Origin: Poecilobothrus nobilitatus | Taxonomy: Eukaryota; Arthropoda; Insecta; Diptera; Dolichopodidae | Direction: 5' to 3' | Length of the DNA stretch: 64,000 nucleotides | Assembly (NCBI GenBank): GCA_947095535.1 | Contig: OX352773.1 | Span: 109,623,950-109,687,949 of the forward strand | Shown here: positions 13,006-42,107 of the stretch, one piece after another | Layout of the letters: every line of letters starts with the position of its first letter | How positions within the stretch are numbered: the first letter of the stretch is position 1 | Notes under the pieces: model-generated | Seen by the model: only the letters and a program-made list of their open reading frames with translations | What the model was told of the DNA's origin: nothing | The model's database searches: none | Translations under genes and position numbers: made by a program

Positions 13006-13049
13006 TCTTTCTCGTTTTAATAATAATTCTAAGTTAAGATTTAATAATA

Positions 13050-22814: not shown

Positions 22815-24150
22815 TATTTAGCGCGCCTATACAAATTTTAAACTATCTAAAAACAAGGTAGAATGTAAACCAACGGTTTTTAAAAGCGCACATTTCCAAA
22901 ACTCAATACAAACTGTTTAGAAGTGTGACTTACACAAAAATTTGAAAATTTCATGTAATAAGAAAAAATGTGAAAATAGGACATTTTTGAAATTTTGAGG
23001 GGCCGTAATTCCGGAATCCTATATAACTAAGAAAAGCCATTAACATACGTAAAAACATAATATTGAACCTTTAATTTTCATGTCTTGGCGAAGAACAATT
23101 TGTACAGGTGCCTAAGTTACAGATGTCTAAAAATAGCAAATTTTCAATTTTTGAGGCGTAATAACTCTTAAAGAGAGGGTGCTACCAAAAAATTTTCGGA
23201 GAAAACTTATACTAATTCTAAAAGTTCTTTCTTGTCTCAAAATTTCAAGTTCCTATCTAAAGGCGTGTCGAAGTTATGAAAAAAGAAATTTCATGCAAAA
23301 TGTGGTTTTCACATAACGGTAAATTTAAATAGTAAATTACAAAATATTACATAATTTTGATATTGTTTTATATAGATAATAAAATTTTCGATCTTCTGGC
23401 GGTTTTAGATTGCAAAACTATTACGCAGAGCCTGAGATATATACATCTGAAAATGGGGCTTTTTTGCAATTTTGAAGAGCTGCAACTTGGGAACCCTTTA
23501 CAACTAAAATCAACCTTTAACACACGTAAAAACATATTACTGTAGCTTTAATTTTTATATCTTGCAGAAGTAAAATGTGTACAGGTTCCTAAGTTACAGG
23601 TGTTTAAAAATAGCAAATTTTCAATTTTTAAGCCCTAGTAGCTCATAAACAGGGGGTGGTCCAAAAACATTTTCTGAGCAAACTTATACTAATTCTAAAA
23701 GTTCTTTCTTGCCTCAAAATTTCAAGCCTCTACCTAGAAGCGTACCGGAGTTATGAAAGTAGAAAAATCATGCAAAATTTTGTTTTCACATAACGGTAAA
23801 TTTAAATACTAAATTTAAAAAAATGTATAATTTTGATATTAATTTACAAAGATAAAAGAAATACCTGTCGAATAACGTTTTCCGATTGGAAAAATCTTAA
23901 GCAGAACATAAGATATATGCATTTAAAAATAGGGCTTTTTCAAAGTTTGAGGGGCTGTAGCTCCGTAATGGGAGGGGCTACATGAAAAAGTTGTTCCACA
24001 AAATTATTTTTTTTATGAGACCTACCCATGGTTAAAATTTTTCTCTATCTTTAACGGTGTAGAAGTTTTGTAAACAGACGGACGGACGGAGGGACAGAGT
24101 GAAACCAATAAGCACATTTTTTCAAAATTTTTTTGGAAATGTGCTAAAAA
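22815..24150 (+). mobile_element. Helitron-related repeat with 477-bp internal repeats
   Basis: CACATAACGGTAAATTTAAATA recurs at 23,310 and 23,787 (period 477 bp), with flanking text repeated (ACTTATACTAATTCTAAAAG, TTATGAAA). The last part (~23,900-24,130), with GGGGCTGTAGCTCCG and GTAAACAGACGGACGGACGG, aligns to ~1900-2130 of the element at the left edge. The CTAGT terminus is not seen; the element stops just before the Polinton end at 24,174. Confidence 0.65.
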
Positions 24151-24173
24151 TAAATAGAAATTAAAAATGGTGT

Positions 24174-24215
24174 CAGGGGATTCCTTTTCTTAACATAAAA
24201 AGAAAAAAATATATA
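24174..24215 (+). repeat. Polinton left terminal inverted repeat (remnant)
   Basis: Starts CAGGGGATTCCTTT, followed by a TTAA and an AAAAAGAAAAAAA tract. The mirror image is at 41,290-41,332 and, as an internal copy, at 39,842-39,887. The outside 6 bp are TGGTGT. Confidence 0.7.
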
Positions 24216-24699
24216 AAAAAATTTATAAAAATATATACTACAAAGTTTTTTTATTTAATTTTTAATGTTTTTCGATATTTATAATTGTCTTCTTTAAATT
24301 CCTTTACAATTGTAGCTAATCGTAATATCTCTTAGCAAATTCTATTAAATTCAAAGTAAATAAATTTGTTAATTTATAATCTTGATCCTATTTCAGTGGA
24401 TTAAATTGAACCAATGTTGACTCAGCATAATTCCTCAGAAACTTAATAATATACTTTATTCCCTTCTTGTATTTCTTTCTGAAAAGTTTTTTATTTTTCA
24501 AATAAAATTGGTTAACCATAAGAATTGTTTTTGCAAACTCCATGTTTTGGTTAAAACTAAAGAAAACTAATTAAGCAGATAATTTAGATATAAAATATGA
24601 AAATAACAAGAATTAACTAAATCTTCTATGGTAGGATGTAAAGTTTATTAGTTAACCTTAAGAACAAAAATAATTCTAAAACAATAAAATAAAACTTTT

Positions 24700-26088
24700 T
24701 TTATAATAATTTTTTTTATTTATCCAGGAATTATGATCAGAAGAAAATCCTAACCATTTAACAAAAATGTTATTATCTCTAGTTTTAAGAATCTTTTCAA
24801 TCAAAAACACTTTTTTTCAGTTTTTAACAATTCATATTCATAGAAGCTTCCTTGTATGGGTTGACCTTGCTAAATTCAGTAAATATGTGACAGGGATAGT
24901 AATTTGAACTTTTCTTATCTTAAATATTTCTGTTGTCCAATTTGGTGTGTAACCTTTTTCAAAAACATGTTTATACTTGCTTATACGAACTGAGTCACCA
25001 ATTTTAAATTTAGCTGGTATAATTAAATTAATAAATTTTAAATTTAGCTGGTAAATTTAGCTGGTTAGCTGGTAGAAATTTTAATATGATTATAAATAGT
25101 AGCTAACAATTCATCAGCATTTTTTCTGTTTACCTCTGTTGACTTCTTTTGAATAGTGCGATGTTTAGAGTTATTGTATTGGTTGACTAGTTTTGAAATA
25201 AAATTAACCCATTTGTAACTCCCATTGAAATTGAATTTTTTCCACATTTTTTCTTTTAGAGTACGATTAAAATGTTCTACTATGGAAGCTTTTAATTTTA
25301 ACGAACTAATTGTTGAATAATGATTTATTTGATATTTGTCCATTAAATTTTTAAAAATTTTATTGTAGAATTCTTTTTCATCAACAATTTCTAAATTTTG
25401 GGGATATCTTTTAGAATTTTCAAAAATATTTTGGATTGCTTCTGTAACGTTCTCTGAAGTTTTTGTTTTTATAGGAACTGCCCATGCATACTTAGAAAAG
25501 GTATCAATCACAGTTAACAAAAATTTAAAACCTTTGTTCTCTTTAGCACATAAATCCATTTCTACTAAATCAGCTTGCCAAACATCATCAAATTCTTAAT
25601 TATAACTCTACGTTGTTTGAAAATTTTCCGTTCCAGCTTATGAAGCTCTTCAACAACCTGTACTCTTTTTAAACAAAATAAAATAGATGTACGTAATTAT
25701 TATGTATAACTAAATAGAAAATCTTTGATTGAAAATGAATTTCCGGTCATTACTAGCTAGAATCTTAGAAATAATATCAGCAGTAATTTGAATTCGTTGA
25801 TTAAATCTGTAGCGATCCAGTGCTATAAATTCCCAATATTTTTGTCGAACTTACTTATATGCTGTACTCCATTTGTATAATATATGTATTTGAGGCTTTA
25901 ACATAAATTTGACTCTCTTTTTTACTTTTTTTTATAAACCTTATCATAATCCTCTTCCTCATGGTTCCCTTCAGCTGAATCTAAAATATCGTCAAAAGCA
26001 ACTGAAATATCATCTTTTCTTCGCTCTCATTAAATGAATCTGAAGCATCAAGCCAATTGAATAAATCTACAACTTTGTTCTTACTCAT
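24700..26088 (-). pseudogene. Polinton integrase (rve/DDE core plus C-terminal chromodomain)
   Basis: Integrates the element by DNA strand transfer. The ATG is at 26,088-26,086 (MSKNKVVDLFNWLDASDSF). A degraded N-terminal region reaches EELHKLERK (~25,650). The core has DVWQADLVEMDL (first Asp), LTVIDTFSKYAWAVPIKTKT, VDEKEFYNKIF (second Asp) and VEHFNRTLKEKMWKKF (catalytic Glu), so all three acidic residues survive. It continues with VNQYNNSKHRTI, then a KFKIGDSVRISKYKH SH3-like strand (~25,000) and a chromodomain-like end (FLIEKILKTRDNN, FVKWLGFSS, ~24,720-24,815). Several frameshifts and stops interrupt it. The central 164-codon stretch (25,065-25,559) is open. Confidence 0.85.
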
Positions 26089-26119
26089 CTTGAAAATAAC
26101 TAGATGAGTAAGAACGAAG
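26073..26119. repeat. 18-bp inverted repeat at the integrase start codon
   Basis: The left arm 26,073-26,090 and right arm 26,102-26,119 are reverse complements with one mismatch, separated by 11 bp. Each arm contains ATGAGTAAGAAC, so both strands carry a copy of the integrase start (MSKN-). Confidence 0.85.
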
Positions 26120-26220
26120 TAAGCCTCTTACACTCATTTATAAATAAAATAAATAAAGCAAACAATAATTGTTCAAATTGTAAAATTTGTATTTTTTATT
26201 TTATATAATAATTTACAAGT

Positions 26221-26830
26221 ATGTATACTTTTATTATAACATATTTTCTATTCTTTTATATAATTTCATTAGTTTGGTACAGCATTGTTCTGCTGAATGG
26301 CATATGCAAGTATCTGGAAAACTTTCAACATTGTCTGATGTATAGAGGCAGAAAAAAAGTAATTAAAGAAGGTTTATCTATTGATATAAGCGAAAGTGAC
26401 ATTGAGAAATGTTTTCTGAAGAAGAGCAAACAAAAGACAGCAGAGAATAACAACAACAACAACATTCTTAACAATAATGATAGCAATAGCAGTATTAACA
26501 ACAAAACTGCAAGTAGGCAAATTATATGTACAAAATTTAAAGAAAGTGCTACAAAACAAAAAATTATGATAGCAAAAAGGAAAAACAACAAAAAATTAAA
26601 TACAGAACTTTTTGGAAATATATATATACAACAACAATAATAGAAATAAAATTTTTATAAATGAAAGTTTAACTAACTATAATCTAGATTTATTTATGGA
26701 AGTCAAAAAATGAAGGGAGAAAAGGACTACAAATATCCTTGGTATAAAAATTGTAATATATTTATTAGAAAGGATGAAAACAGTGCAATCTTCATAAAAA
26801 GATAATTTGATGACTTACAAAATATTTAAA
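26221..26830 (+). pseudogene. FP25-like / LINE ORF1-type protein relic with Asn-rich linker
   Basis: 139 open codons: an N-terminal hydrophobic segment, a central Asn/Ser-rich stretch (~26,440-26,510), then ICTKFKESATKQKIMIAKRK, then in another frame NKIFINESLTNYNLDLFMEV and KDYKYPWYKN...FIRKDENSAIFI. The last part matches the C-terminal domain seen in baculovirus FP-like proteins and in many insect LINE ORF1 proteins (INExLT...LF..AK; KDEN.). It may be a separate LINE insertion or a Polinton cargo gene. The upstream start is uncertain. Confidence 0.5.
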
Positions 26831-26984
26831 GGGTATATATTTTTTTTTCTACTTTACATCTATCTAATTTATAAAAGGTGAACCATATAATTAGTTAACA
26901 TTTAGATAATAAGTAAATCAATTGACAATTCATTAAGTGACTTGTAGTCAGAAATCCATTGATATCTACCTTTTTTCTGTATTT

Positions 26985-29567
26985 ACTCTTTCAGCAAAGT
27001 GTTCATTGTTTTAAAACCTTGAAACGAAATTAAAATGAGTGAATCGTTTTAGCCTGTGGTGCTCAGGGTTTCTTGCTTTAAGTTTTCTGATCAGTAGATT
27101 TGGATGGTTGTCTAAAGTATTTTCTACTCCGCAGGCCTACCTCTTCTTTGATGGAACAAATTTGTAAATCATTTCTGATTGTTTAGTTGCGTACATAACA
27201 CGGTGCGTTTGTTATTAATCTAAGTGTTTTAGCTTGGAAACGCTCGATTATCTCTATATTTGATACACTGGTTGTACCCCATAGTTCAATACCATATGTC
27301 CAAATTGGTTTCAGTATACATTTGTAAATCAAAGCTTTATTTTGCAATGATAGCAACGATATTTTACCTAGTAACCAGTGCATACTATTTAGTTTAGTTC
27401 GAAGCTGTTTAATTTTGTTAAAAATATATGTACGCCATGTTAGCTTTTGATCTAGGTGAAGTCCAAGGTATTTAGCTGAATTTGCCTGTGGAATGTCGAT
27501 GCCGATTAATGTGACAGGTGGACAGGTATATTTTTTTAAGGTAAACCTGACATACACTGATTTGGCTTCATTGGCTTTAATTCTCCACTTTTTCAACCGT
27601 AGCTGTATATCGTTCAAGGCGAATTGCAGTTTTGCAGAAGCATTTTCTGAAATTGTGCTAGAAGCTAATAACACAGTGTCGTCAGCATAGGTTACCATGC
27701 TTATTTCACTATTTTTGGGAAGATCTGCTGTGTATATTAGGTACAGTATTGGTCCCAGTACACGGCCTTGTGGTACTCCAAAAAAGATGTCGAGTAGCGG
27801 TGTACATTTTCCATTATATTTGACAGCGAATTTTCTGTTAGTTAAATTAGAACGTAAAATTTGGTAGAATATAGCTAATTTATTTACAAAATTACATGTA
27901 CAAAATTCCTTGGTATCAGACTTTGTCGAACGCTTGACTAATATCCAAAAAAAACTGCAGCGCAATATCTTTTGCTCTCTAGATCTGTTCTTATATAATC
28001 AACCACTCTATGTACCTGTTCAGTTGTTGCATGGTGTTGCCGGAAACCAAACTGATGATTAGGTATGGCTCTCTTTTCATGTAATGTCGGTTTTAATCTG
28101 ATCATGAAGAGCTTTTTAAAAATTTGTGAAAATGTTGAATACAGGCTAATCGGCTTATAAGAGGATACTAAATTCATATCTTTCCCAGGTTTTGGTATCA
28201 TTATTATTTCGGCAATTTAGCATTCAGCCGGAAAATAGTTTGTTCTGAGAATAGCATTGAATAGATAAGTAATGTTTTCCTCTTGCTGATCCCTTTGAAA
28301 ATATTTTCAACTTCCTTTGTAGAAAAGCTTTTGATTGACACACTCATTTGATATGGTGTTGATAAAAAATTAATAATGTCATTATTATCTGCATCAAAAG
28401 ACTTGAATACGTTTCTAAGATACTCCGCAAAAGCTAAAGCTTTATCAGCATCTTGCCCCATCTCCATTATGTTTTCTTATTGGCGGAATATGTATTTGCG
28501 GTCTCTTAAGATTTTTCGTTGCCTTCCATAAAAAAAGTTGGTATTCTCAGTAGGTGTTAGATTTTTTAAATAATTTGCAAACGATTTATTTTTGATTTTA
28601 TGTAGCAGTGTTTTGATATTTTTCGTAGCCATATTTAATTTTGCCTTATCTGCAGGAGATCTAGTTTTTTGCCAAATTTTCTTAGTTTTCTTTTTAGCTC
28701 TATTTCTTGTTTAATGTCGTCTGGCTAAATATCTTGCCTTTATGTTTGGGTGTTGCAAACTCAAGAGCTTCTTTTACGATGTCACTAAATTTAGTGATCG
28801 CTATCAAGATCTCATTTTGTGTTTTAAGAGGTATGTTTAATGACAATTTACCATCTGCTATGGTTCTAAATTTGTTCCAGTTGGGGTTGCTTGAATGCAA
28901 CCTTGTAAATGTGGTTGTTGTACAGATGGTTGCCTTAGTAGATACGATTACTGGACTATGATCGGATGAAAGGTCAAAGCATGGCTCTACCAATAGATGG
29001 TTACTACAAATTCCTTTTGTGATGCAGAAGTCTATAACATCTGAAATTTTACTTAAATCTGTGGGCCAATATGTTGATTGACCAAAAACAATTGCCTGCC
29101 TCTGTGAGTGATAATTCTTGAGCCCCAATGCATGTGTTTACAGTTGTAGTCACCTCCAGCTATGAATTTGTTACCAAGTGTTTTGAAAAATTCGACGAAC
29201 TGTGTTGATCTAATATTATGTTTTGGTGGACAATATAGAGCCGATATCGTAATAGAGCCATTATAAGTTTCCATCGACAAACTTGTTGCTTGCAGATAAT
29301 CTTTATTATATTTGTTTAATTGAAAAGGTTTTAGTGAACTTCTGATGATGATTGCTGATCCTCCATGAGCTATTCCATCCGTGTGTTATTATAGATGTTG
29401 TAATTTTTTATTTTAAAATAACTTCTATTAGTATAATGTGTTTCCGAAATTAGTAGTATATCAATTTTGTTTTGACTTAGAAATAATTTCACTTCTTGCG
29501 TATGTTGTGCTAGGCCGTTGGCATATGTTGTGCTAGGCCAGTAAGCTAGTTTAAGTAGTTGAGACAT
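26985..29567 (-). pseudogene. J1 ORF2 (APE endonuclease and reverse transcriptase)
   Basis: The endonuclease spans 29,567-28,700 in pieces: LAYWPSTTYANGLAQHTQEV, SALYCPPKHN, FIAGGDYNCKHMHWGS, SDVIDFCITKG, SSDHSPVIVS. RT follows: MIPKPGKDMNLVSSYKPISL (~28,200), VPQGRVLGPILYLIYTADLP (~27,780) and catalytic VTYADDTVLLAS (~27,690; both Asp intact), then KYLGLHLDQKLTW and the C-terminal IWTYGIELWG. The longest open stretch is 27,183-27,965 (260 codons). Frameshifts at ~27,950, ~28,205, ~28,700 and ~29,100 make it non-functional. Confidence 0.9.
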
Positions 29568-29569
29568 GA

Positions 29570-30650
29570 CTAAATTTGTTTGTGACTGTGGATAGTATAT
29601 TTAACATTATGCTCATTTGTTGTGTGAAGTTTTTTAAATTCTGTTATTTGATTTTGCAGTGATTTTTGATTTGTTGTACAAGTTTTTTTTTTTTTATTAT
29701 CAATAGTAGTTTTTACCATATCAGCAAACGTGTGGTTAGATTGTACCGCTTGACCAGCTGTAGTTGGTACAATGGGTAAAACGTTATTTATTGTTTTTCT
29801 TGCGCGTAATGGTGGAAAATTCCTTTGCAGGTTTTTGTAGTGGCTGCAGCCTTTGCAATTAGCTGTATGATTTTCAGGACATAGTACACCTTTGACTAGG
29901 TTATCTTTACTTACTCTTTGGCATTCAAAGGAGTAATGATCTTCTGCACATTTTACAGATCTAGGGTTCTTATGGCAATATTTACTGGTGTGACCACAAC
30001 GCTGGCATGATATGCATTGCGGAATTTCCTTTTTTGGATGTGGTGGTTCGAAGGATACTATTGTATGTAGCATTTTTTGTATGGATTATATCTCTTTATT
30101 GCTCGTATTTAGGCTTAAGACTATATAAAATAATGGCAGATGTTTTTTAGTTGTACGTTGTTTAACATTGTACACGTTTGAAACTGTGTGTCCAAAAGTT
30201 TCTAATTCATCTTTGATAGATTCTGGCGATGTAGAAGGATGTAACCCTCGAAGAACCACTCTAAAGCTCTTTTCTGGTTTAATTTTGTACATGTGGTACT
30301 CTTGATTTTTATCCGAGAGAGCTTTAACTATTTCTCTATATGTTTCAGGTGCATTAGCTTGGACTTTAACCTCTTCACTGTTTATCACTTTAATTTCGTG
30401 CTGACCAAGAGCTATATCTTTAAGTAGTTCCGTGAGAGAAAACATATTTTGTACTTTGGCCACGAATATTGGTGGTGGTTTGGCTGCTTTTTGGTTTACT
30501 TTTCCTTTTTGCTGATTTACCGTTTTGACATTTGGTATGTTGTTTTTATTTTCAGTTTTATCTGGTAAACCAAACTATACACACAACTTTTGATGCTTGC
30601 CATTTGGTTCTTTTACAGCACTATCGAGTTTTCTTTTGATAATGGGAATT
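29570..30650 (-). pseudogene. J1 ORF1 (Gag-like RNA-binding protein)
   Basis: Nucleic-acid chaperone of the jockey clade. The first part (30,086-30,463) has an RRM-like region: KVINSEEVKVQANAPETYRE, then FRVVLRGLHPSTSPESIKDE. The second part (29,570-30,073) has the tandem zinc knuckles CQRCGHTSKYCHK, VKCAEDHYSFEC and C-PENHTANCKGC, followed by a FADMVKTT tail. The two parts are in different frames, joined by a frameshift near 30,080. Upstream sequence to ~30,650 reads in frame with a stop. Confidence 0.85.
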
Positions 30651-30659
30651 AACTGGAAA

Positions 30660-33600
30660 AGGCATATTTGTTAGTTAATAAACAAATATATTTTTTGTTT
30701 TTGTTTTTATTATGATTCTAAAAAATTATCTTGTTGCAGATTGCAATAATAATAATTTTCTTGTAGTTCAAAACTTAAGTTTGAGACAAAATTTTGACGT
30801 TTTTGTTGCAAATCTTGAAGCCTTAGCAAATATTCCTGACTTTATTTTCATATCTGAAATTTGAATTTAAGATTTTGAGGTAAATGCTTTCAAAATACCG
30901 GGTTTTATTTTTTTTTGCTTGCACTAATAATACATACACAACGGGCGGTGTAGGTGTTTTTGCAAAGAACGAATATGATTGTGTAGTAGAAAATTTTAAC
31001 TTTTTATAAAGAGATATTATAAAAATTAGTTGTAATATTAAAAGTGAACCATTCACTTTTATGTGTATTTATAGATTTCATCGACAAAACGTACAATTAT
31101 TTCTTGAAGGATTTTCAAAATTATTAAGTGATGTAAGAGCTAATAATCTTTTAGTGTTATGGGACTTTAATTTAGACCTTTTAAATTGTTGTGAATATGT
31201 GGAATCATAGCTCACAGTTATAGCGGAATATGGTTTAACATCTTTCATAAATGAAATTACAAGACCTAATTCTGGTACATGTATAGACCATATTTTAGGT
31301 AGGTTTAATAAAATACGACTAAATTGTTGTGAAATTGTCAATATGGATCATTGCAAATTTCGGATCATTGTATGACAAGCCTGTTAATAAAAGTACTTAA
31401 AAAACAAAAACCAGAAAAATATATCACTTTACCAGGCAAGAAAGAAATTCATTTCAAAAAAACTTAATCAAAAACTAAAGTTTAAATTTTGAGAAAATGT
31501 TTATAATGACATTGATGTGTCTTCAGCTTTTAAGAATTTCATAAAAATTTTACTTGGTCATATAAAAGAGTGGTATACAGTGAAAGAGCCAAAAAAGGTG
31601 AAAAAATATTTAAAAATTTGGATGAATAAGAAATTACTTAAAAAAAATTAATTTAAAAAGCAAATTAAGGGTTAAATGTTCTAAACATCCATCAAATAGC
31701 AGAATTAAACTTAATTTAATTAAATTTAATTAAAAAATTAAAAAAGATATTTCGAATTGTCGTGATAACTATTATCAAAACAAATTCTCTGAATGTGAAG
31801 GGAACCTAAAAAAAGAATGGAAGTAAATTAATAATATAGCAAATAATTAGGCTCGCTTAGACATAAAAATAAGTTTTTTAACTAATAGTTCGACTATAAT
31901 TGACTCAACCGAAATAGCAAACAAATTTAATAATTATTTTACTTCGATAGCAGAAAATTCCATTCCTCCTGATTACTCTTTATTATGTAACTGCTGCAAA
32001 AATGTAAACTTGGTAGATGTTGCATATTCTGAAAATAGTTTCTTTTTTAACAATATTATTACATTAGAATTACTAAAAATCATTAAATCATTAGATGACT
32101 GTGATTCTAAAGGTTCAGATGGTATATCTAGTAATATTCTGAAAAATATTGCGTTTAACATTGTGGGTGTGTTGTCATATATCTTTAATCATAGCATTAT
32201 GTCGGGAGTATTCCCGGAAGATTTGAAATGTGTTATGGTAATACCTCTCTTTAAAAAAGGAAGTACTAAGGAAGTTAATAATTACAGACCAATTTCGTTA
32301 TTATCCACATTTTCTAAAGTGATTGAGAAAGCGGTGAAAACTAGGATAGTAAATTTCTTAAATAAAAACTTGTTTTTTGACTCTACTGGACTTTTGTTAT
32401 AACGTTCAACAAGGTTTAGATATGAAAAAATGTTGTGCAGGACCCTTCGTAGACATAGCATTCAACATGTTAAACCATAATATTCTTTTGAAAAAACTTT
32501 TAAATGGCGGATTTAGAGGACAAATACTTGACTGGTTTAGATCATATTTGGACAATCGTACTCAAAAAGTAAAGTTGAAAACCAATTTAGCAATCTTAAA
32601 GCATTAAAACATAGGGTACCCTAGGGTCCGGTTTTGGGTCCAATCCTGTTCTCAATATATATAAATTCGTTATTTAACCAGCCTTTCCATAGTAAGGTGA
32701 CAGCGTTTGCTGATGATTTGGGGTGTACACACACATCTGATTCTCCATTAGATATGGAAAGCACTTACTATGGAAAGTGCTATTGATAATGATTTATTTG
32801 TACTCAGAAATTGGTTTACGGAACATAAATTGATTATGAGTAACAAAATCAAGAACATGTTTTTCAACCTTTCTCACAAGAATCTGCCTGATTTAAATAT
32901 GTTATTTCACTCTTCTGAGTGTAAAAAGTTTAAATTAATTAATACTTTGTGTACCTCAAATGTTAATGTAACTTCCTTTTGTAACAACGAAGTCTGTAGC
33001 ATTAACTGCTTTAGTATCGAGATAGTGAAAAAATTCAAATATTACTCTAGATTGTGATATGCATTGGTCGAACACACTCTAGAATTAAAAAATATCTGCG
33101 CACTACATTACGGAATTTTTATCGTTTGAGCCAAGTTTGTTCAAAAAAGTTAATGAAACAATTCTACTACGGAATATTCCATTCGAAAATTCAATATGGG
33201 ATATCTTGTTGGGGGGGAGCATATCTAAATAAAATTAAACCAATACTTGTTATTCAAAAGTGCGTAATAAGAAAAATAAGTAAAAAAGTTGATTACATCC
33301 TGTCTTTGCTTTGTTTACTGAAATTAAAATCCTACGGGTTAGGTATTTATATTATTAAAAAGTTTTAAAAATATTTTATAATGGAGCAGGCTACTTAACG
33401 AGCAGATCTTCTACTAGATATAACCTGAGAAATAATGATAGTTTAGTTAACGTTCCTACTTTCCGAACAATAAATTTCCGAAACTCATATACTGTGGTAT
33501 ATTGCCGTTTATTTAACAAGCTACCTGTACCAATAAAAAATATAAGAAATCCAAATAAATTTTTAAATAAAGTTAAAGCTTGGTTGCTATAATTCAAACA

Positions 33601-34175
33601 CAATGAAATCGAAGATCTATTAAAAGTTATGATTTAAATTTTCTTTTTATTTTTTTTCTAACATTTCGAATTTTGTTTTATTTTATTCCTACTCCTTATC
33701 TTATATCATTATAAACACTTTAAAATTGATATATTACTTACATTTTCTTCCTTCTCTACATGATTTTAATTGAGTTTTGTAATATTTCCTTTCGCTTATT
33801 TTTTTGGCTTTATAAATCTTAAGCTTTGTTTTTTTCTCTACTTTTTATATTTAATTAATTAATTGATATTAAATAATATTATATAAAAGTTGTACTTACT
33901 TTTTTTTTTACCTTTTTATTATTAATTTCGATTATGTATTTTTTAGTTGATGATAATATATAATGTAATACAATAACCCCACAATAACGTATTAGTACAT
34001 TTTTTAGTATTTAGTTTATTGTGAAATGGCATTGAACACAAGTTTCTGTAATTTTTAAATGTCATTAACTATTCTCTCATACAATATTATTGTACTTATT
34101 AATGAACTATATTATTGTATATTGTTGGAGAATAAAGACTTATTTAAATAAATAAAAATAAAAAATAAATATATC
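30660..34175 (+). mobile_element. CR1-like LINE C (5' truncated), decayed
   Basis: Non-LTR element. The endonuclease remnant (30,780-31,370) has FIFISEI, PGF, TGGVGVFAK and LLVLWDFNLDLL, where GDFN has become WDFN. RT spans 32,010-33,600: SKGSDGISSNIL, SGVFPEDLKCVMVIPLFKKG, VNNYRPISLLSTFSKVIEK, then after frameshifts FVDIAFNMLNHNILLKKL and VTAFADDLGCTHT (catalytic Asp pair intact, ~32,700). The C-terminal region includes YNLRNNDSLVNVPTFRT and RLFNKLPVPIKN (to ~33,590). The tail ends in TAAA-type repeats at ~34,150-34,175. No ORF1 present. Confidence 0.8.
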
Positions 34176-34384
34176 CCGATGATATCCATACTCCTTTGTT
34201 TCAATTTGTAGAGAATTTTTAAATAAATTTCTTCCAATAAAATATGTTCTTCCAATGTTCTTCCAATAAAATATCTTCATATTTATTTAAAAAAATATTT
34301 AAAGAATATCCGATTTGATGTATATCCATTATGGAAGTTGAATGAAAACTAACCACAATTATTTCCTTGAATTATTAATTAAAT

Positions 34385-34860
34385 CTAATACTGATTGAGC
34401 TTTAGCTTCAGGGTTTTGTAGTCGTGCATTATAAATCCAATTAGTTTTTTAACTTGAAATTCAATAAAATCATTCATTTTTGAAAATTTTTCCTTTAACA
34501 TTACAGAAAATTTGATCTGGATTTGCTCTAAACTATCTTGCATTCTTTCTTCCAGTATTCTTAATTTTTCTTCTCCTATTTTAAGTTCTATAGACCTTGC
34601 TTGCTTTCTCTGTGTGATCAAACATTTCTCTTATCTCGTTTTGCAATAGTTCTTTGTGAAAGAAAATTTAATTATTCACAAATGTTTGTGTTGCTGCATC
34701 ATATCCGTTAACTGGGATCTTGAACATTTGATAAAATTTTGTTATCTAAATCATAATTTCGATCAGAAGTTAGTTTGAAACCAATACCCGGAGGACCTTG
34801 AGTATGCAGTTTTTTTAGAAGAAGCTGTACTACGTCATCAAGTGACTTATCAAGTGACAT
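34385..34860 (-). pseudogene. Conserved Polinton protein (coiled-coil type), truncated
   Basis: Start ATG at 34,860-34,858. The frame reads MSLDKSLDDVVQLLLKK, then GPPGIGFKLTSDRNYDLDNK and LSNVQDPS, stopping at 34,709. It continues in another frame as YDAATQTFV and then as a helical, charged stretch (EEKLRILEERMQDSLEQIQI and onward) predicted to be coiled coil. I recognise GIGFKLTxDxNYD-xxNK-LxNV as a conserved Polinton-encoded protein of unknown role, probably virion-related. It sits directly downstream of the next gene on the same strand. Confidence 0.55.
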
Positions 34861-34879
34861 TTTGATTTTTACTAATTGC

Positions 34880-35894
34880 TAATGTAAAATACTATTGAAT
34901 TATAGTTGCTTCTCTTAATTCTTCAATTATAGATACAATTTCATTATGATGATTATTGTTACCAGCTGATTGTGATGAAATTAGAAGGCGTATTCTATCA
35001 ACTAACTTGGATTATCCCAATAAACATATTGATTTGATTGATTTGTATAATTTAATTGGGTTTGTGGTTAAAGATTTATAAAAAAATAGATTTATAAAAA
35101 AATTGAGTAAATTTTTTTTTCGAATAACCTGATCCAGTTTTTTTATGCCTAGTGTCATAATCATGTTCATATAATTTTCTTAACATATTCTTGAATTTCA
35201 AACCTGTGTTTCTTTTTATTTGTTCTAAAGGATTATAATTTCTTCTATGTGCATTCGTTTTGTTAAGAATTTGATGATATGTACTTAAATCACTTTCAGT
35301 ATATTTTAGAGATTTTTTTTTTAAATATTAATTCATATAAACCATCTGTACGTTCAAAACTTCCTTATCAATCAAAATATTTTTATTAATTTCATCTATT
35401 TCAAAATTAGCATTGCCAAGTTTTCGCACATTTAATGATTCATCAAAATAAGGTCCATTAGTCTTATCGAGTTCTGACTTGTTTAGAAACAAAAATTGTA
35501 ATATTGATGGTGATTCATCATTATCAAATTTTATAGTATTCGGAGTTGAAGTTTTAAGTTCATTGTAAGTATTACTTCTGTTGCTAGGTGTTTTAACTTC
35601 CGGCCTAAATGACCTCATTAACTTACAATTTTTATCATTATCATCAGCCCATTCAATTTTTGGTTTGATATCTGAAATTCGTTGTTGTTTAACAATATTT
35701 GTTAATTCTTTTAATGGCTTTGTAATTGGAGTACATTTTTTTTCCCGATTATGATCTTCTGAAAGCTTCTTAATTTTTAAAGATTGAAATTTTCTTTTTA
35801 AACTTTTACGAGTTTTAATTAAATCTTTCAATTGGAATTTTGTTTTTAAACTTTTACGAGTTTTAGTTAAATGTGTCATAAGTGGTTCATCCAT
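34880..35894 (-). pseudogene. Conserved Polinton protein with Lys/Arg-rich N-terminus
   Basis: The first 188 codons (35,328-35,894) are open: a basic, repetitive N-terminus (two TRKSLK(T/R)KFQ units), then LNVRKLGNANFEIDEINKNI. After a frameshift near 35,330 it reads KYTESDLSTYHQILNKTNAH, LEQIKRNTGLKFKNMLRKLY and finally LVDRIRLLISSQSAGNNNHH then NEIVSIIEELREATII. These blocks correspond to a protein that recurs in insect Polintons; its function is unknown to me. Three breaks make it inactive. Same strand as the integrase and opposite to the protease. Confidence 0.6.
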
Positions 35895-35909
35895 TTTTTA
35901 AATGGAAAC

Positions 35910-36030
35910 TAATCTGTTCAATTATTAACGGCAAATTAACAGCCGAACTATTCTATTGCTAACTGGTAACAGCTAATTACTAACTCCTATCGCTAAATGA
36001 TCCGTTCAGTTAATAACTAACTGCTGGATG
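35910..36030. repeat. Degenerate GTTA/CTAACTG short-repeat cluster (foldback-like), copy 1
   Basis: A patch of repeated TAACTG/TAACAG/CTAATTAC words with CGCTAAATGATCCGTTCAG. The same words and the ATGATC(A/C)(G/A)TTC landmark recur at 39,399-39,490 (opposite orientation) and 41,515-41,625 (same orientation). Confidence 0.6.
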
Positions 36031-36041
36031 TTAAAGGGCAA

Positions 36042-36880
36042 TTAGTGGGAAGATTGGAAACGAATCCATAAAGATTCGTTTTGAATTTTTGCAGAAGGGA
36101 ATTTGACAGAAGGGAACACATTAGGTGGAAGAACGTTCCACATCTTAGCAGTTCTCACAACAAATGAGTTTCCATAGCCAGTTTTAAACATTCTTGGAAT
36201 TTCCACAGTGTAGAAATGAGCACTTGCTGCTCCTCTGGTGTTACTGTGGAATTGTTTAAGAGGAAGCATAATTGATTTAAGTTCAATAGAGCAAGTGTCA
36301 TTACCTACAAGATATCTTAACAACATATTACCCCATAGATATCTTAATAACAGAGAAATAGCTCCAATATTACGACGAGAGTTAAGTGGAGTAAGTGTTA
36401 CTTGTTCGACTGGGTCGCCTATTAGGCGTAAGGCGCGGTTTTGAATTTTTTCGGGGTAACTCAGAGAAGTTTGGGATGCGCCAGCCCAAATGTGAGAGTT
36501 GTACCCCATCTTAGGTCGAATGTAGGCTTTATAAATATAGATATAGATAGATAGATAGGTGAGAAATATGTTTTGCAGCGGGACAGAAAATCCAAACATT
36601 TGGCAGCACTTTTAGCTATAACAAAAATATGCCATTCCACAGCATTTTTTGATTTAGCTGCAAACCTAAAATGCTTAGACTTTCTGATCACTCTATATTT
36701 TCTCCTTGGAATCGCAGAATTGGGTTAAACTGATTTCCTTTGCAGGAAATCAGGCAGCTTTAGTTTTTGAGGTATTAAATTCAACTCTATTAGTTTTACC
36801 CCAATCGGCTATTTTAGCTAAATCATGGTTAACTAAACTAACCATGATATTTCTTTTCGAAAATGATAATGAAAAAAAAT
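36042..36880 (-). pseudogene. LINE family A, copy 2 (C-terminal half of RT ORF)
   Basis: The minus strand reads LAKIADWGKTNRVEFNT (~36,835), then SAAKCLDFLSRCKTYFSP, YIRPKMGYNSHIWAGASQTS, IQNRALRLIGDP, RGAASAHFYTVEIPR and NSFVVRTAKMWNVLPPNVFP. It is colinear with the C-terminal part of the 44-kb copy. 185 codons are open (36,042-36,599). A TATA-rich tract (36,536-36,560) replaces part of the sequence. The RT active site is absent. It lies inside the Polinton. Confidence 0.85.
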
Positions 36881-37560
36881 GGCGCATTGATTATTGAAGT
36901 GCATTGCATGAGCCAAAGGCTACATGCAAGTGCATTGAATATGACCCAAACGACATTGAGGCTATTTCAGTAAAGTACGATATATGTTTATTCCAGAAAA
37001 GGATAAACGAATTTCAAAGAACCATTGGTGGTTATACATTTCGTAATTAATACAAAAAATTAGCCTTAGAAATATAATATTAGAATAGGCGTAGGTTAAG
37101 TTAGGTAAGTTTTAGGTTAGCATAATCTTAAGTTAGTTTATTTATAAAATATTAAGGTTAATAAGGTTTTATTTATAAAATTTAAATTAATTTTGGTTTT
37201 TATTACAAATTTTCCAAAATTAAATTCTCTGATAAAAAATTCTCTTAGAAAAAGGAAAAAAAAAAAAAATATAATAATAAAACAAATTAAATAAAGAAGA
37301 AAACTGAAACACTAAAATATAGTTTAAGGTTTTAGTTCTAAGTTCTGAAATAAATGTTAGTTTTGTAAGCTTTTTTACTAACCCAATGTAGCCAAAAATG
37401 ATTAAAAAGAAAAATAAAAAAGTATATAAAAAAAATTAATAGAAAACCATAATTATCAATCCAACAGCATGCACTCAACCTTTTATATGTTTTAAATTTA
37501 AATTATCTTGTTTGCTTTGGAATTCTTGTATAAGACTGACATAAATAAAAGCTATCTACA
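36881..37560. other. Polinton interior without a recognised gene
   Basis: A plus-strand stretch (~36,900-37,050) reads open for ~50 codons (KATCKCIEYDPNDIEA) but I cannot assign it. The rest is AT-rich with GTTAGGTAAGTT-like low complexity near 37,090. Confidence 0.4.
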
Positions 37561-37564
37561 ACTT

Positions 37565-38120
37565 AATGCCGTCCTGGCTATATACCTGGCTATAATTATT
37601 GTGGACCGGGAATAAAATTAGCAAAACAATTAGCTCGTGGTGATAAAGGGATTAATCGTTTAGATGAAGCTTGTAGAGAGCAGGTTATTCAAAAAGTTCT
37701 GATCAAAATTAACGTCATGTATCTGACAATAAATTAGCAGAAAAAGCTAAAGCTTGGCAAATAGTTAAAGCTAAAGGCGCAAGTTTTGGTGAAAGGTTAA
37801 ATTCATATCTAGTTATATACGCAATGAAAGCTAAAGTTAAACTTGGTATGGGTTTAAAAAGGAAACAAAAAAAGTTCAAAGAAAAAAACCTTTGAAAATG
37901 TTATAAAAGAAGTTAAATTAGTTATTAAAACTACAAAGAAACCAATGAATGATAAAAATATTATAAAAATTGCTTCACATCGAGCTCGAAAGTTTTCTTA
38001 GGGTCAGAAAAAAAAATTGATATCCCTCGAATAATTTCGGTACCAAAAATTGGAGGAGTTTTACCTTTAATCCCAATATTTGCTGGTTTGCCAGAATTGC
38101 ATTTAAAACCGCATAAAACA
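37565..38120 (+). pseudogene. Polinton phospholipase A2-like (parvovirus VP1u-type) protein
   Basis: The start region reads GYIPGYNYCGPGIKLAKQLA, with the YxGPG calcium-loop signature of parvovirus VP1-unique PLA2 domains, then RGDKGINRLDEACRE. The catalytic His-Asp that should follow is lost in a short deletion/frameshift at ~37,683. It resumes as ADNKLAEKAKAWQ-like text (here SDNKLAEKAKAWQIVKAKGA), AMKAKVKLGMGLK and, after another frameshift, IPRIISVPKIGGVLPLIPIF, a hydrophobic membrane-active-looking segment. In virus-like Polintons such a protein presumably helps virions escape endosomes. Immediately precedes the protease. Confidence 0.7.
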
Positions 38121-38130
38121 TACCGAGTTT

Positions 38131-38525
38131 ATGTCTGTTTTTGAACACAAAAAACCGTTAAACGAGCTACCCAAAAGAGCACTCAACAATTATGAGATAG
38201 AAGAATTTGAAAGTAAATATTTAAAATATTTTCGCGGAGCTTTTATGAGAGATATATTACCGGCAGATAAACTTCGGAAATATGAAGGTATAATAAATTT
38301 GGATAATTGTAGCTTATTGGTAGCTTATTACAAGAAACCGTAAATTGTGCAATATTTTGACAGTTTTGGAAATTTAAAACTCCCATTAGAAGTAATTCAA
38401 TATTTAGGAGATAATCTTATGTATAATTACAAAAAATATCAAAACTTTAATTCATATAATTGCGGTCATCTATGTTTAGATTTTTTATTTCATATTGTTA
38501 ACAAAAAAAAAATTATCAGTAAATA
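38131..38525 (+). pseudogene. Polinton adenain-type cysteine protease (virion maturation)
   Basis: Adenovirus-protease/Ulp1-like fold used to mature capsids. Visible blocks: KRALNNYEIEEFESK, FRGAFMRDILPADKLRK, GIINLDN, LVAYYKKP, then a stop at 38,341, and VQYFDSFGNLKLPLEVIQYL and NFNSYNCGHLCLDFL. The catalytic Cys region (YNCGHLC) is intact, but the GTHW stretch with the catalytic His before VAYY is missing, so the gene is dead. The length (~130 codons) is close to family size allowing for the gap. Plus strand, just after the PLA2-like gene. Confidence 0.8.
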
Positions 38526-38800
38526 AAACATGCATAAAACAAAAAAATTTTTTCTTTATTATTAGTCTGACTTAATTAAAAAAACTCACTTACATTAATA
38601 ATTTTGTTCAAGTTCAAGGGTAAAAGAAACAAAAAGTCCTGATAAAGAATAGTTAGAATTACAAAAGAAATTTAAAGAAAAATTTAATTAAATTGAAACA
38701 TATTATATACATATACATATTTTTATTGTGATAAATCAACCTTGAAAATCTATAAAAACCGAATGCATTTCTGAAATACCTCATTATTTCAATTAAAGAT

Positions 38801-38986
38801 ATGTCAATAACATTTACTTTAAACGGAAACTCTTCTATATTGTCAACTAATTATTTTTTTCATATAGACCTAAAGGAGAAAGAATATACGTGTGGTTTAG
38901 CAGATTTCCAGACATATTATTCAATACCGAATATAAATGAGGAGAATAAGAGCCCCATTAATATGAGAATAATTTTTTTCTTATAA
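38801..38986 (+). pseudogene. Polinton virion-associated protein, N-terminal fragment
   Basis: 61 codons starting MSITFTLNGNSSILSTNYF, with DLKEKEYTCGLADFQTYYSI and PNINEENKS. This is the recognisable start of a conserved Polinton protein (F-L-x-GNSS ... Y-x-x-GL-x-x-F-x-x-x-x-SIPN) that I believe is structural, but I cannot say which capsid component. Truncated at 38,986. Probable start at ATG 38,801. Confidence 0.55.
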
Positions 38987-39398
38987 AATTTATGTTAATA
39001 TAAACATATCAATCAAAAAATACTCTTCTACGTTACTTTTACCATACTATATCTACTACATTGTTTTAAAAATTTAATAGCTCAAAAACATATATACACA
39101 TACTCTTCTACATTACTTTTATGTTGCATGAATTAAATTTTTTTTAATGAAATATTATATATATGTATGTGTGCATAAGTAAATATATATATACTACTAA
39201 CCTTATTAGTTGTTATTAATTTACACAAATTTTTTTATATCAGTGCTAGTGGTAGTGTCGTTGTACTATACAACTTACATGTCCTTCTTTACAATCAACT
39301 ATATTAAGCTAATATGACAACACTAAAAAATAAATTTTTTGTCTCTATATACAATTTGTTTAAAAAAGTGTTCCAGAACCCTTATATTGCTATAAACG

Positions 39399-39490
39399 GA
39401 ACTGATCATTTAGCAGTAAGCAGTTATCAGTTAGCGGTTAGCAGTTATCAGTTAACAGTTATCTGTTAGCGGTTACCAGTTAGCAGATGA
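39399..39490 (+). repeat. GTTATCAGTTAGC short-repeat cluster (foldback-like), copy 2
   Basis: Tandem ~10-bp words (AGCAGTTATC, AGTTAGCGGTT, AGTTAACAGTT) start just after GAACTGATCATTTAGC. The reverse complement of this start and of the words is at 41,515-41,625, so the two clusters form an inverted pair 2.1 kb apart. Confidence 0.75.
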
Positions 39491-39841
39491 ATAGTAAAAA
39501 TAACTTTGGTAATGAGCATCATACCATAGAACATAAGAAAATAACATTTATCAAAAATGATTACGTAATTCAAATTTTTTAACTTCAAACTTTTAACACT
39601 TAATAATCTAATTCCTTGAATTATCATGTGGTTACCATACGTTATCAGTTTTCATATTCACTCTTTTCATACCATTATAACATGCTATCACTCTCATTGA
39701 ACATAAGTTGATTCAAATCCAAATTGTAGAGTACCTATTTTTGTGGTTTACTTTTTAATCCTAAAATATATCTATCACGATTTACTAAAATTGTAAAGAA
39801 ATTTCAAGAAAATATTGTAAATATGGAAACCATTAAAAATA

Positions 39842-39887
39842 AAAAATTTTTTTTCTTTTTATATATTTTAACTAAAGGAATCCCCTG
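39842..39887 (-). repeat. Internal duplicate of the Polinton right terminus
   Basis: TTTCTTTTTATATATTTTAACTAAAGGAATCCCCTG is repeated exactly at ~41,297-41,332 in the same orientation, 1,445 bp further right. The right-flanking bases here (TGAGGT) match the left flank TGGTGT less well (4/6) than those at 41,333. Confidence 0.75.
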
Positions 39888-40039
39888 TGAGGTTGTAAGA
39901 TGTCATAAGTCGACAGAAATCATGAAAAATTATTATCTATAAAATAAAATAAAAAATTATATATATTTTTTTTAAATAAAATTCTTTATTATACATATTT
40001 TTATTATAATTTTTTTTATTATTTATTTTTATTGGCCTA

Positions 40040-40365
40040 ATTAAATTTGCTACATAATTCAATAAATAAATTATTAAAATTACTAATTTTATGATATTTT
40101 GATTTTATTAAATTTTGTATAATTATTATTTTATTTTTATTTTCATCTAAACATTTTTTGTAATCACTAAATTCTATTTCTTTTTGTACATTAGATTTTT
40201 TAACACTTTTAATTATTTTATATATTCTTAATTTTCAACTTTAATTGTATACATTTTTGATCTTAAACCAATAAATTCTATAATATTTTTACTTTAATTA
40301 TATCATATATGTATATTTTTGTTATTAATTTCTAAAATAAGACTATCAGCATCACTGTATAAAAG
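40040..40365 (-). pseudogene. Polinton DNA polymerase B C-terminal relic
   Basis: Minus-strand text starts with LLYSDADSLILEI (40,335-40,365), polymerase motif C of protein-primed family B polymerases (canonical YxDTDS, here DAD with both Asp kept). After stops it continues with EFIGLRSKMYTIKVEN, QKEIEFSDYKKCLDENKNKI-like text and HKISNFN, the pattern seen after motif C in Polinton PolB. Exonuclease and palm motifs A/B are not found, so only the last ~110 codons remain, with several stops. Position near the right terminus is normal for POLB. Confidence 0.65.
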
Positions 40366-40399
40366 ACTACAATTCTGTTGTAATTTTAATGTATTCTTC

Positions 40400-40640
40400 C
40401 TTGGAAATTTTCTTCCAAGTATAACATAAAACTTCACATCGTGTTTTCGCCACAAATGTTTCTATATCTCTTTTTTCAGACATTCTGAAAAATCGCTCAT
40501 CAGTAATTACTGGAATTTTCTTACAATATCATTCCGATTTTCACAGCACCTGGGTTGTTGATGGTGACACAACTATTCGGATATCCTCTGAGTTCATCTT
40601 ATTTTATGTTATTATGTTTAGTAAGATCTTAATAGAACAC
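40400..40640 (-). other. Broken coding-like stretch upstream of PolB relic
   Basis: The minus strand reads KIPVITDERFFRMSEKRDI and TFVAKTRCEVLCYTWKKISK over ~75 codons with two upstream stops. It runs directly into the PolB relic but does not resemble PolB. The function is not recognised; it may be a different Polinton gene joined by deletion. Confidence 0.35.
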
Positions 40641-41289
40641 GAATTTCTTTCAATGTAATAAGCTAATTGTAAATTATCCTTTTATATAAATTTTTTTATT
40701 TGTGTAGAGGAAATTTCAGCATTTCGGCAGAATTTTATTAATATTTTATTAGATATGAATTTTTTATTATTTTTATAATGTACAAAGTAAGTGTGTTTTA
40801 TATTAACAAAGAAAAAAGTTTAGTCAATTATAACGATGTTGTTGCTGTTTTTGTAATAAATTTTGAACTAGCTGTCAGCGTTATCGGCTTGAATAAAATA
40901 TATGAGAGACAGCAATTAGCGCTAAGGTTCATAAATAAAAAAAAACATTTGTTTATTATAATCAAAACTGTAATTATTAAAAAATAATAATAATATACTA
41001 TAATAATATGCACAAGATCATTTCTAGCTAATATAAAGAATTTACCATTTACCACAAAAATTTTCATTATCACATTTAAATTATTTTCGTAGACAGCGTT
41101 AAGGTTTTTCCTATTTTACTATTGAGCTATAAATTTATGATAAGGCTTTTTCTTTGTTAATATAAAAAACACTTACGATGTATATTATAAAAACAGCAAA
41201 AATTTCTTATTGTAGAATATGATTACAAAACAAATAAAAATTAAAATACTAAAATGTATTAAATTTCAATATTAATATACATACATATT

Positions 41290-41332
41290 TTGGTTTTTTC
41301 TTTTTATATATTTTAACTAAAGGAATCCCCTG
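41290..41332 (-). repeat. Polinton right terminal inverted repeat (remnant)
   Basis: Mirror of 24,174-24,215; ends AAAGGAATCCCCTG and is followed by TGCTGT, a 5/6 match to the left flank. Confidence 0.7.
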
Positions 41333-42107
41333 TGCTGTCATTTTAGTCGAAACTTCATGCTATTCTAGTAGTCTTAGTTCTAAGTTTGAAATGAAATAAT
41401 GTAATATGTAATAGATATTAGTTACGCTTTGTGAGTGTATTGAAAATATTGAGTGAATAAAAAACTATTGTAAAGGAGTACCACAAGGTTCAATTTTAAG
41501 GCTACTTATTTTATAGAATTACTGCTAAATGATCAGTTCCGTTGTTATGATCTTATTTCCTTTTCGCAACTGATAACTGCTAATTGATAACTGCTTATTG
41601 CTAAATGATCAGTTCAAATCATCTCAGCTTACAATAGTCTGACGGTAAAACACATTTTTGTGATATCATTAATTTTTAAAAAAATTTTATATCCAAGCAA
41701 ACAAAAATTTATGTTAAAGGAGAAGAAAAACAATCTTGAATTATTAACATATTGAAAACTAATAATGTTTTTGATTTGAATAATAGTGATTCTACATGTT
41801 TAAAAATATTGAAGAATTAACAAATTTGTAGTATTCAAAAATGCAATTTTTATCCCGTTTGTGCTTTGGAAAATATTTATTTAATAAAATTGCTGATTTA
41901 AGCAATTTAAAAGTATTTAAGAAGAGAAATTATTAAAAACACATCCATTTTACTATTATCAATAAGTCAATATGGATGAAAATAGTCTAATATCACATAT
42001 TTTACCACAATGAGGAATACATTAAAAAGGTTTTGCGCACGGGATTCATAGCCCCTGAGCATTTTATCTTCTTAGATAAAAATGGTTATATTCAAAACCA
42101 AAATCAA
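41333..42107. other. Intervening DNA with a short LINE RT scrap and foldback-like cluster copy 3
   Basis: 41,475-41,498 reads GVPQGSIL, the RT motif of LINEs, with nothing else of the gene. 41,515-41,625 is the third short-repeat cluster (TTGCTAAATGATCAGTTC). 41,680-42,100 reads in broken frames (CSIQKCNFYPVCALENIY) but I cannot assign it. Confidence 0.5.

What the first reader, a model, noticed from the sequence alone, without database searches (positions are those of the whole stretch)
24174..41332. A complete-span fossil Polinton/Maverick recognised through nested LINEs
The inverted termini (CAGGGGATTCC...) and near-identical 6-bp flanks (TGGTGT/TGCTGT) are 17.2 kb apart and bracket integrase, protease, PLA2-like, PolB and two conserved Polinton proteins that otherwise look like unrelated scraps. 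The genes are on both strands as in known Polintons. Three LINEs inserted later account for about 7.9 kb.
Basis: partly seen in the sequence, partly recalled or inferred. Interest (0 to 1): 0.8.

Follow-up and report, generated by a model that had tools for sequence, protein, structure and literature searches.

The report
Broken mosaic of two dead Polintons
The stretch really is a dead Polinton (a large virus-like DNA transposon) broken up by later jumping genes, but it is not one complete element: its right part comes from a second, rearranged Polinton, and the proposed ends and flanking duplication lie inside the elements.

Summary
The Polinton call is right; the "complete span" is not. Integrase, PLA2-like, protease and PolB fragments are there, on both strands, split by LINEs. 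Of the 150 scored protease hits in the window's own genome, 52 have an integrase 3.8-5.0 kb upstream on the opposite strand, so these blocks belong together. But CAGGGGATTCC is not a terminus: in relatives the homology runs on about 190-830 bp outside it, and the "6-bp duplication" TGGTGT/TGCTGT is family sequence. The motif occurs three times (24174 +, 39877 -, 41322 -), each closest to a different group of copies elsewhere. The first element (E1) starts near 22115; a 1.3-kb insert splits its terminal repeat. Its homology stops at 38952. From 38955 to 41984 lies a second Polinton-derived piece (E2) with the PolB remnant; its order recurs elsewhere. An empty-site copy shows that 26351-34168 (7,818 bp, LINEs on both strands) is one later insertion; a third, LINE-like insert adds about 1.3 kb. 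The capsid gene of relatives and a right terminus of E1 were not found. Ordinary fossil; in passing, the host holds a seemingly recently mobile Polinton group, 100% identical over 10 kb compared on two chromosomes.

The parts
22115..22172 (+). E1: outermost terminal repeat; left terminus at about 22115
   Evidence: 22119-22172 is 81.8% to the outer terminal repeat of the Polinton C1:98476755-~98494229. Of the 41 matches, 7 start at window 22115-22122 and 28 others end at 22112-22122 (an adjacent flank repeat); 2 end at 22128 and 22144, and 3 near-identical copies (the L002-L004 loci) run across the junction, that is, share flank and element.
22189..22856 (+). E1: rest of the outer terminal repeat (22189-22561 and about 22696-22856)
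   Evidence: 82-90% to L094; 22736-22856 85% to L060 and 84% to L061; 89-91% to L002, L003, L005.
22857..24145 (.). later insertion of about 1.29 kb inside E1's terminal repeat, with an internal direct repeat (22968-23482 / 23445-23957, 79%)
   Evidence: window 22856 and 24146 align to neighbouring bases (246 and 242) of L060; direct repeat.
24146..24636 (+). E1: inner terminal-repeat region with the CAGGGGATTCC motif at 24174
   Evidence: 74-86% to L060, L062-L066 and L068-L070 (L070 only to 24543); 41 matches in the genome, the window's own included (40 of 612 candidates scored).
24838..25595 (-). E1: integrase fragment (rve core open in 25068-25595; C-terminal part in another frame, 24841-25056)
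   Evidence: PF00665 E 8.4e-10; 603 homologues among 640 candidates, best 76%; the alignment shows a near-invariant Asp of the core replaced.
26351..34168 (.). 7,818-bp later insertion at one site: LINE frames on + (RVT_1 in 31851-32399) and on - (RVT_1 in 27186-27998, endonuclease in 29056-29385)
   Evidence: empty-site copy L005 joins window 26350 to 34169; Pfam (the + strand RVT_1 match, E 7.9e-4, is below Pfam's own cut-off).
34169..35997 (-). E1: conserved Polinton stretch with minus-strand frames (34388-34630, 35079-35327, 35331-35897) and the start of an internal minisatellite
   Evidence: 34169-34360 83.9% to L005; 34296-34738 89.6% to L093; 35123-35997 93.3% to L096 of the young group; no Pfam match.
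36026..37433 (-). third insertion, about 1.3 kb, LINE-like (frame 36045-36611)
37580..38150 (+). E1: PLA2-like / minor-capsid protein remnant
   Evidence: 37580-37875 87.5% to L096; frames read; the open frame in a genome copy matches Phospholip_A2_4, E 7.9e-15 (L022).
38107..38526 (+). E1: adenain-like protease remnant (in-frame stop; segment with the presumed catalytic His missing)
   Evidence: 150 scored matches of 2,615 candidates, up to 95% identical; compared with L022 by eye.
38756..38952 (+). E1: start of the gene that follows the protease (penton position); homology stops here
   Evidence: 38328-38952 90.6% to L054; junction read.
38955..41144 (.). E2: second Polinton-derived piece, with a CAGGGGATTCC motif at 39877-39887 (-)
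   Evidence: 38954-40656 79.6% over 1,792 columns to L099, next to a match to the Polinton terminus there; 40096-41004 85.9% to L092.
40040..40461 (-). E2: PolB C-terminal remnant (two pieces in different frames, 40040-40234 and 40306-40461)
   Evidence: both pieces match the PolB end of L051 (E 2e-08 each); that L051 piece has 606 homologues; of the 120 listed, 6 are named DNA-directed DNA polymerase and 1 carries PF03175.
41144..41520 (-). E2: PolB-side repeat with a CAGGGGATTCC motif at 41322-41332; homology continues 188 bp outside the motif
   Evidence: 10 of 11 copies of this type align 186-250 bp beyond the motif; PolB-like frames lie inside the motif in L095 (by eye).
41521..41984 (+). 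E2: minisatellite, then a fragment of the gene that follows the capsid gene in relatives
   Evidence: 41616-41984 75% to L054 2945-3320; 41562-41942 90.7% to L097, 41719-41981 89.6% to L098.

Best explanation
The locus is a mosaic of two dead Polintons. E1 is an integrase-bearing Polinton inserted with its left terminus near 22115. It kept its left terminal repeat, integrase, the minus-strand genes, the PLA2-like protein, the protease and the start of the next gene; the rest (capsid gene, its own PolB, right terminus) is gone. After E1 came a 1.3-kb insert in its terminal repeat and the LINEs. At 38952/38955 it is joined to E2, a piece of a rearranged Polinton derivative that carries the PolB remnant and both minus-strand copies of the motif; E2 lacks about 80 terminal bases, so the join looks like deletion or recombination, not a clean nested insertion. 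While alive such elements would copy themselves with protein-primed PolB and integrate by their rve integrase with a 6-bp duplication (recalled; a 6-bp duplication with one mismatch was seen in one relative here). Shown: identities, homology outside the motifs, empty site, junctions. Inferred: order of events and how E1 and E2 were joined. The integrase and protease remnants here are broken.
For: Integrase, protease, PLA2, PolB identity. Co-occurrence: 52 of 150 scored protease hits have an integrase 3.8-5.0 kb upstream on the other strand; mean 1.2 pairs of any orientation within 20 kb in 200 random placements. Homology outside the motif and true terminus. A relative with both ends: C1:98476755-~98494229, terminal repeats 96.5% over 342 bases, flanks TCTATG/TTTATG, sitting in another Polinton. 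E2 copies. Empty site for the LINE pair. Each window motif groups with other copies, not with another window motif: 93% to L005, 91% to L087, 94% to L075 and L071, against 63-80% among themselves (32 rows of relatives).
Against: No right terminus was seen for E1 or E2, so their full former extent is not known. The region just inside the motif is not part of the terminal repeat in every relative (L060/L061, two ends of one element, are 80% alike there; L066/L067, if a pair, 60%), so the grouping alone does not prove two elements; the outer homology and E2's copies carry the case. Copy counts are lower bounds, because only the best candidates are scored. Genome searches with the two right ends and with the PolB piece did not complete. 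The region right of 41984 was compared only with five relatives.
Confidence: 0.83

Rival explanations
1. E2 is E1's own PolB-side end, brought next to the protease block by an internal deletion and inversion, so there was one element.
For: E2 holds what E1 lacks (PolB, a PolB-side repeat); inverted minisatellite copies inside 39395-39490 and 41519-41615 (48 bases, 92% complementary) could mediate an inversion; the C8 copy has the piece beyond the minisatellite in the other arrangement.
Against: The E2 order occurs at C1:256.42 Mb and partly at C8:75.69 Mb and C1:173.50 Mb, at C1:256.42 with a Polinton terminus on the 38955 side and an integrase piece beyond the 41984 side; a terminus on the 38955 side faces the wrong way for E1's right end.
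Confidence: 0.12
2. One reading: one complete Polinton from 24174 to 41332 with termini CAGGGGATTCC and a 6-bp duplication.
For: Inverted exact motif and similar hexamers; matching gene set on both strands.
Against: Homology runs past both motifs in relatives; the hexamers are family sequence; a third motif at 39887; the E2 order recurs as its own unit elsewhere.
Confidence: 0.03
3. The junctions are assembly artefacts between similar Polinton copies.
For: The genome holds very many similar copies, and raw reads were not available.
Against: Junctions inside E2 recur at other loci at 77-91% identity, so they are old; I saw no second copy of the 38952/38955 join in what I fetched.
Confidence: 0.02

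Closest known systems
Polinton/Maverick (polintovirus) elements of insects
   Same: rve integrase (with chromodomain in some relatives), adenain-like protease by place, PolB, PLA2-like protein, double-jelly-roll capsid in relatives, genes on both strands, long terminal inverted repeats and a near 6-bp duplication in one relative. A PLA2 domain is named in a figure legend that also shows T. castaneum and A. pisum fragments (PMC3671162, passages).
   Different: This copy is truncated, frameshifted, split by LINEs and fused to a second piece; the capsid gene and a right end were not found.
Young group of the same genome (C1:15.69 Mb, C2:156.17 Mb, C8:3.40 Mb)
   Same: 86% integrase protein identity, 93.3% DNA identity over 877 columns, 90.5-90.9% over the protease region.
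   Different: Open integrase and protease frames, copies 99.5-100% identical to each other; no match to E1's terminal repeat was seen in its left part.
Adintoviruses
   Same: Polinton-related animal elements (recalled; papers seen as search listing only).
   Different: Not compared; no adintovirus sequence was at hand.

Membership tests
Polinton/Maverick | rve-family integrase | tested here: met
   PF00665 8.4e-10; best homologues are 306-aa rve proteins, some with a chromodomain
Polinton/Maverick | adenovirus-type cysteine protease | tested here: inconclusive
   Same gene place and 150 scored genomic relatives; no Pfam peptidase match for the open frame of L022, weak hit to ASFV S273R protease, E 0.17
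[quoted passage not shown]
   Met for a C-terminal remnant in E2 only; family B by homologues, protein priming not testable; not found in E1
Polinton/Maverick | double-jelly-roll major capsid gene | tested here: not met
   PF21738 in relatives L054 and L061; the window's homology jumps from L054 632 to 2945 and no piece matched it. Read as loss
Polinton/Maverick | FtsK-type packaging ATPase | not tested
   No ATPase profile turned up among the frames scanned; no dedicated search was made
Polinton/Maverick | terminal inverted repeats at both ends | tested here: not met
   Left repeat present; no long inverted partner in the part of the hit list shown (list cut). A relative has both, 96.5% over 342 bases
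Polinton/Maverick | 6-bp target site duplication | tested here: not met
   The claimed TGGTGT/TGCTGT is element sequence; in the relative at C1:98476755 TCTATG/TTTATG, 5 of 6

The most novel reading that the evidence does not exclude
The genome around this fossil carries a recently mobile animal Polinton group: the C1 and C2 copies are 100% identical over 1,497 + 8,541 bases compared (99.87% over 757 more, partly overlapping), share about 16 kb, and have unrelated flanks; 20 of 150 scored integrase hits have one and the same top score below the window's own, beside many more distant groups. The window's E1 is a decayed cousin, so one genome holds the series from young to dead.
Probability: 0.72. 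Interest if true: 0.45.

Novelty: new member of a known kind. Interest (0 to 1): 0.22.

Why it matters
It shows how a true but short inverted motif inside a terminal repeat can make two Polinton pieces look like one complete element, and that homology outside the supposed end in sibling copies exposes it. The host may be of more use than the fossil: a recently mobile Polinton group in an animal would allow direct tests of whether Polintons move as transposons, as viruses, or both.

Tried and rejected
Rejected: (1) CAGGGGATTCC as a hAT-like or other transposon end: relatives continue outward, in one case to a terminus starting with AG. (2) The AACTGATAACTGC repeats as LINE tails, my first idea: they are Polinton-internal, present in the young copy L096 at 831-1006. 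(3) Pairing 24174 with 39887 as the true ends, which I considered because the regions just inside share 74 columns at 81%: rejected because 39887 lies inside E2, whose copies run on past it. (4) Calling the gene after the protease PY, as I did in my notes: PY is the capsid protein (PMC4028283, passages), so I call it penton position, by place only.

Led nowhere: Pfam, PHROGs and NCBIfam for most small fragments; integrase scan of viral contigs (8 pattern matches, none confirmed). Genome searches with DNA 41080-41345, DNA 39640-39930, DNA 38953-39394 and the PolB piece did not complete; what lies at 38953-39394 was settled by a piece fetched for another reason (L099).

Against or limiting my reading: L066/L067, if they are a pair, do not match outside the motif beyond a few bases; L060/L061 are only 80% alike just inside it; L071 follows the 41332 type only 47 bases outward; three near-identical copies share both flank and element with the window at 22115. 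Rows dropped: L069, L077, L084 and the near-duplicates L003, L004, L006, L007, L009, L010, L052 were not put into the grouping.
Full report
What was checked. Three exact copies are far above chance: mean 0.01, maximum 1, in 200 Markov-1 resamplings. The two right-hand copies are identical over 41 bases.

Genes. The integrase piece 25068-25595 (-) matches rve (PF00665, E 8.4e-10) and 603 proteins in the large collection (of 640 candidates); the best are 306-aa rve proteins at up to 76% identity. The alignment with 23 of them shows a near-invariant Asp of the core replaced. The protease is broken: compared by eye with a relative with an open frame it has an in-frame stop and lacks the segment with the presumed catalytic His. 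That relative's protease has only a weak hit to the ASFV S273R protease (E 0.17) and no Pfam peptidase match, so protease identity rests on place and on a motif recalled from adenain. The frame upstream in that relative matches Phospholip_A2_4 (E 7.9e-15). PolB is present as two C-terminal pieces at 40040-40234 and 40306-40461 (-), each matching the PolB end of relative L051 (E 2e-08); that L051 piece has 606 homologues, and of the 120 listed six (from a beetle, ants and a wasp) are named DNA-directed DNA polymerase and one carries PF03175. Pfam itself named none of the PolB pieces scanned.

Do the blocks belong together? In the window's genome (944 Mb, 84 contigs) I compared the 150 scored protease hits (of 2,615 candidates) with the 150 scored integrase hits (of 8,540). 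Of 66 pairs within 20 kb, 59 have the order and strands seen in the window, and 52 protease hits have an integrase 3.8-5.0 kb upstream; random placement on the three large contigs gave a mean of 1.2 pairs and a maximum of 5. In the window the distance is 13,276; taking off 7,818 and about 1,325 for the inserts leaves about 4.1 kb, within that range.

Inserts. Relative L005 joins window 26350 directly to 34169, so 26351-34168 (7,818 bp) entered at one site. It contains reverse-transcriptase frames on both strands (RVT_1 6.9e-13 on minus and 7.9e-4 on plus, endonuclease 4.1e-08 on minus); that the minus-strand LINE lies inside the plus-strand one is my inference. The third insert, 36026-37433, is missing in the young copy L096 (83 bases against 1,408); its frame gave no Pfam match and is called LINE-like by eye.

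The termini. In relatives the homology does not stop at the motif. Of 20 printed rows of related ends (19 places), 17 read TGACGT or a one-base variant before it and 3 near-identical copies TTATGT. The window's TGGTGT is that family sequence, decayed; on the right, 11 of 11 copies of the 41332 type read TGATGT where the window has TGCTGT. So the near-identical hexamers are not a target duplication. One relative, C1:98476755 to about 98494229, shows both true ends: terminal repeats of 342 bases at 96.5%, beginning about 314 bp outside the motif, with flanks TCTATG/TTTATG; it sits inside another Polinton. In the L002 copy the terminus lies about 830 bp outside the motif. The outer repeat of this family is found in the window at 22736-22856 and 22119-22172. 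Of the 41 matches of a search with 22060-22200, 7 begin at 22115-22122 and 28 end at 22112-22122, which marks the junction of flank and element; 2 run a little further and 3 near-identical copies run across. Between 22856 and 24146 the window has a 1.29-kb insert that L060 lacks.

The right side. E1's homology ends at 38952 in the gene after the protease. From 38954 or 38955 on the sequence matches L099 (C1:256424200-256426750) at 79.6% over 1,792 columns; there it starts about 20 bases after a 58-base match to the Polinton terminus (window 22117-22174, 86%), and those terminal bases are missing in the window. Parts of 39438-41004 are at C8:75.69 Mb at 77-86%. Around 41332, 10 of 11 copies of its type align 186-250 bp beyond the motif. 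Window 41562-41942 lies in the same arrangement beside the motif at C1:173.50 Mb (90.7%), and 41719-41981 at C1:256.43 Mb (89.6%), followed there by an integrase piece. So I read 38955-41984 as a Polinton-derived unit of its own, E2. The capsid gene of relatives (PF21738) falls in the gap between L054 632 and 2945 and was not found in the window. Of the 979 frame pieces compared with five relatives, those beyond 41933 that matched did so in other parts of two of these loci, L051 and L067.

Pairing test. Over the 150 bases inside each motif the 24174 copy is 93% like L005, the 39887 copy 91% like L087 and the 41332 copy 94% like L075 and L071; among themselves the window copies are 63-80% alike (32 rows of relatives). 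This alone is not decisive, since L060/L061, the two ends of one element, are only 80% alike there; it agrees with the outer homology.

Age. E1 is 93.3% identical to the young group over 877 columns and 87.5-93.4% in other stretches. That is a moderate age, perhaps of the order of ten million years with insect rates recalled from memory, so "fossil" is right but not deep.

What else the genome shows. Copies at C1:15.69 Mb and C2:156.17 Mb are 100% identical over 1,497 and 8,541 bases and differ at one base in 757 near the left edge; the C8:3.40 Mb copy is 99.5-100% identical to one or other of them. The C1/C2 match ends near C1:15707.7 kb, while C2 and C8 go on matching to the end of the fetched stretch (9,946 columns, 99.8%). 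Eight pairs of 201-base samples in register at C1 and C2, four on each side, show no similarity, so the copies are dispersed; the left edge lies between C1:15691200 and 15692000 and the C1/C2 shared span is about 16 kb. The stretch between integrase and protease was not compared base by base between these copies. In one search, 20 of 150 integrase hits have the same score, the best after the window's own.

Literature. PMC4028283 (passages): Polintons are 15-20 kb with PolB, integrase, ATPase, protease and jelly-roll capsid proteins. PMC3671162 (passages): PLA2 in a figure legend with T. castaneum and A. pisum fragments. PMC6035795 (passages): many Maverick/Polintons in a braconid wasp. PMC2836005 and PMC4642659 were seen as passages. 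Protein priming of replication in this family is in PMC4028283; the 6-bp duplication as a family trait is recalled. I make no claim that this host's Polintons are undescribed.

Noticed in passing
G000 C1:15691200-15710500, C2:156.17 Mb, C8:3.40 Mb (L053-L054, L056-L059, L096, L100-L118): Seemingly recently mobile Polinton group: copies 99.5-100% identical where compared on three chromosomes, unrelated flanks at C1 and C2, open integrase and protease frames.
   Followed up: partly
L096 831-1006; window 35957-36025, 39395-39490, 41519-41615: A minisatellite (AACTGATAACTGC-like) lies between the minus-strand genes and the PLA2-like gene of the Polinton and recurs at rearrangement junctions in the window and relatives; it may promote the rearrangements.
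   Followed up: partly
window 22857-24145: 1.29-kb insert with similar inverted ends (GCACATTTCC / GGAAATGTGC) and an internal direct repeat offset by 477 bp (79%); family not determined.
   Followed up: no
G000 C1:98476755-98494229 (L060, L061, L089): A Polinton inserted inside another Polinton; window 35242-35614 is homologous to the host element at that site.
   Followed up: yes
window 46500-50200 and 50300-54500: Two long, near-identical LINE-like stretches in tandem (for example frames 47751-48266 and 51779-52294, seen).
   Followed up: no
window 4826-5119 (-): Frame that looks by eye like a transmembrane part of an ionotropic glutamate (NMDA-type) receptor, so the window may lie in or near such a gene; not tested.
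   Followed up: no
window 7950-13554 (+): Gypsy-like LTR retrotransposon frames (reverse transcriptase / RNase H / integrase appearance by eye); not tested.
   Followed up: no
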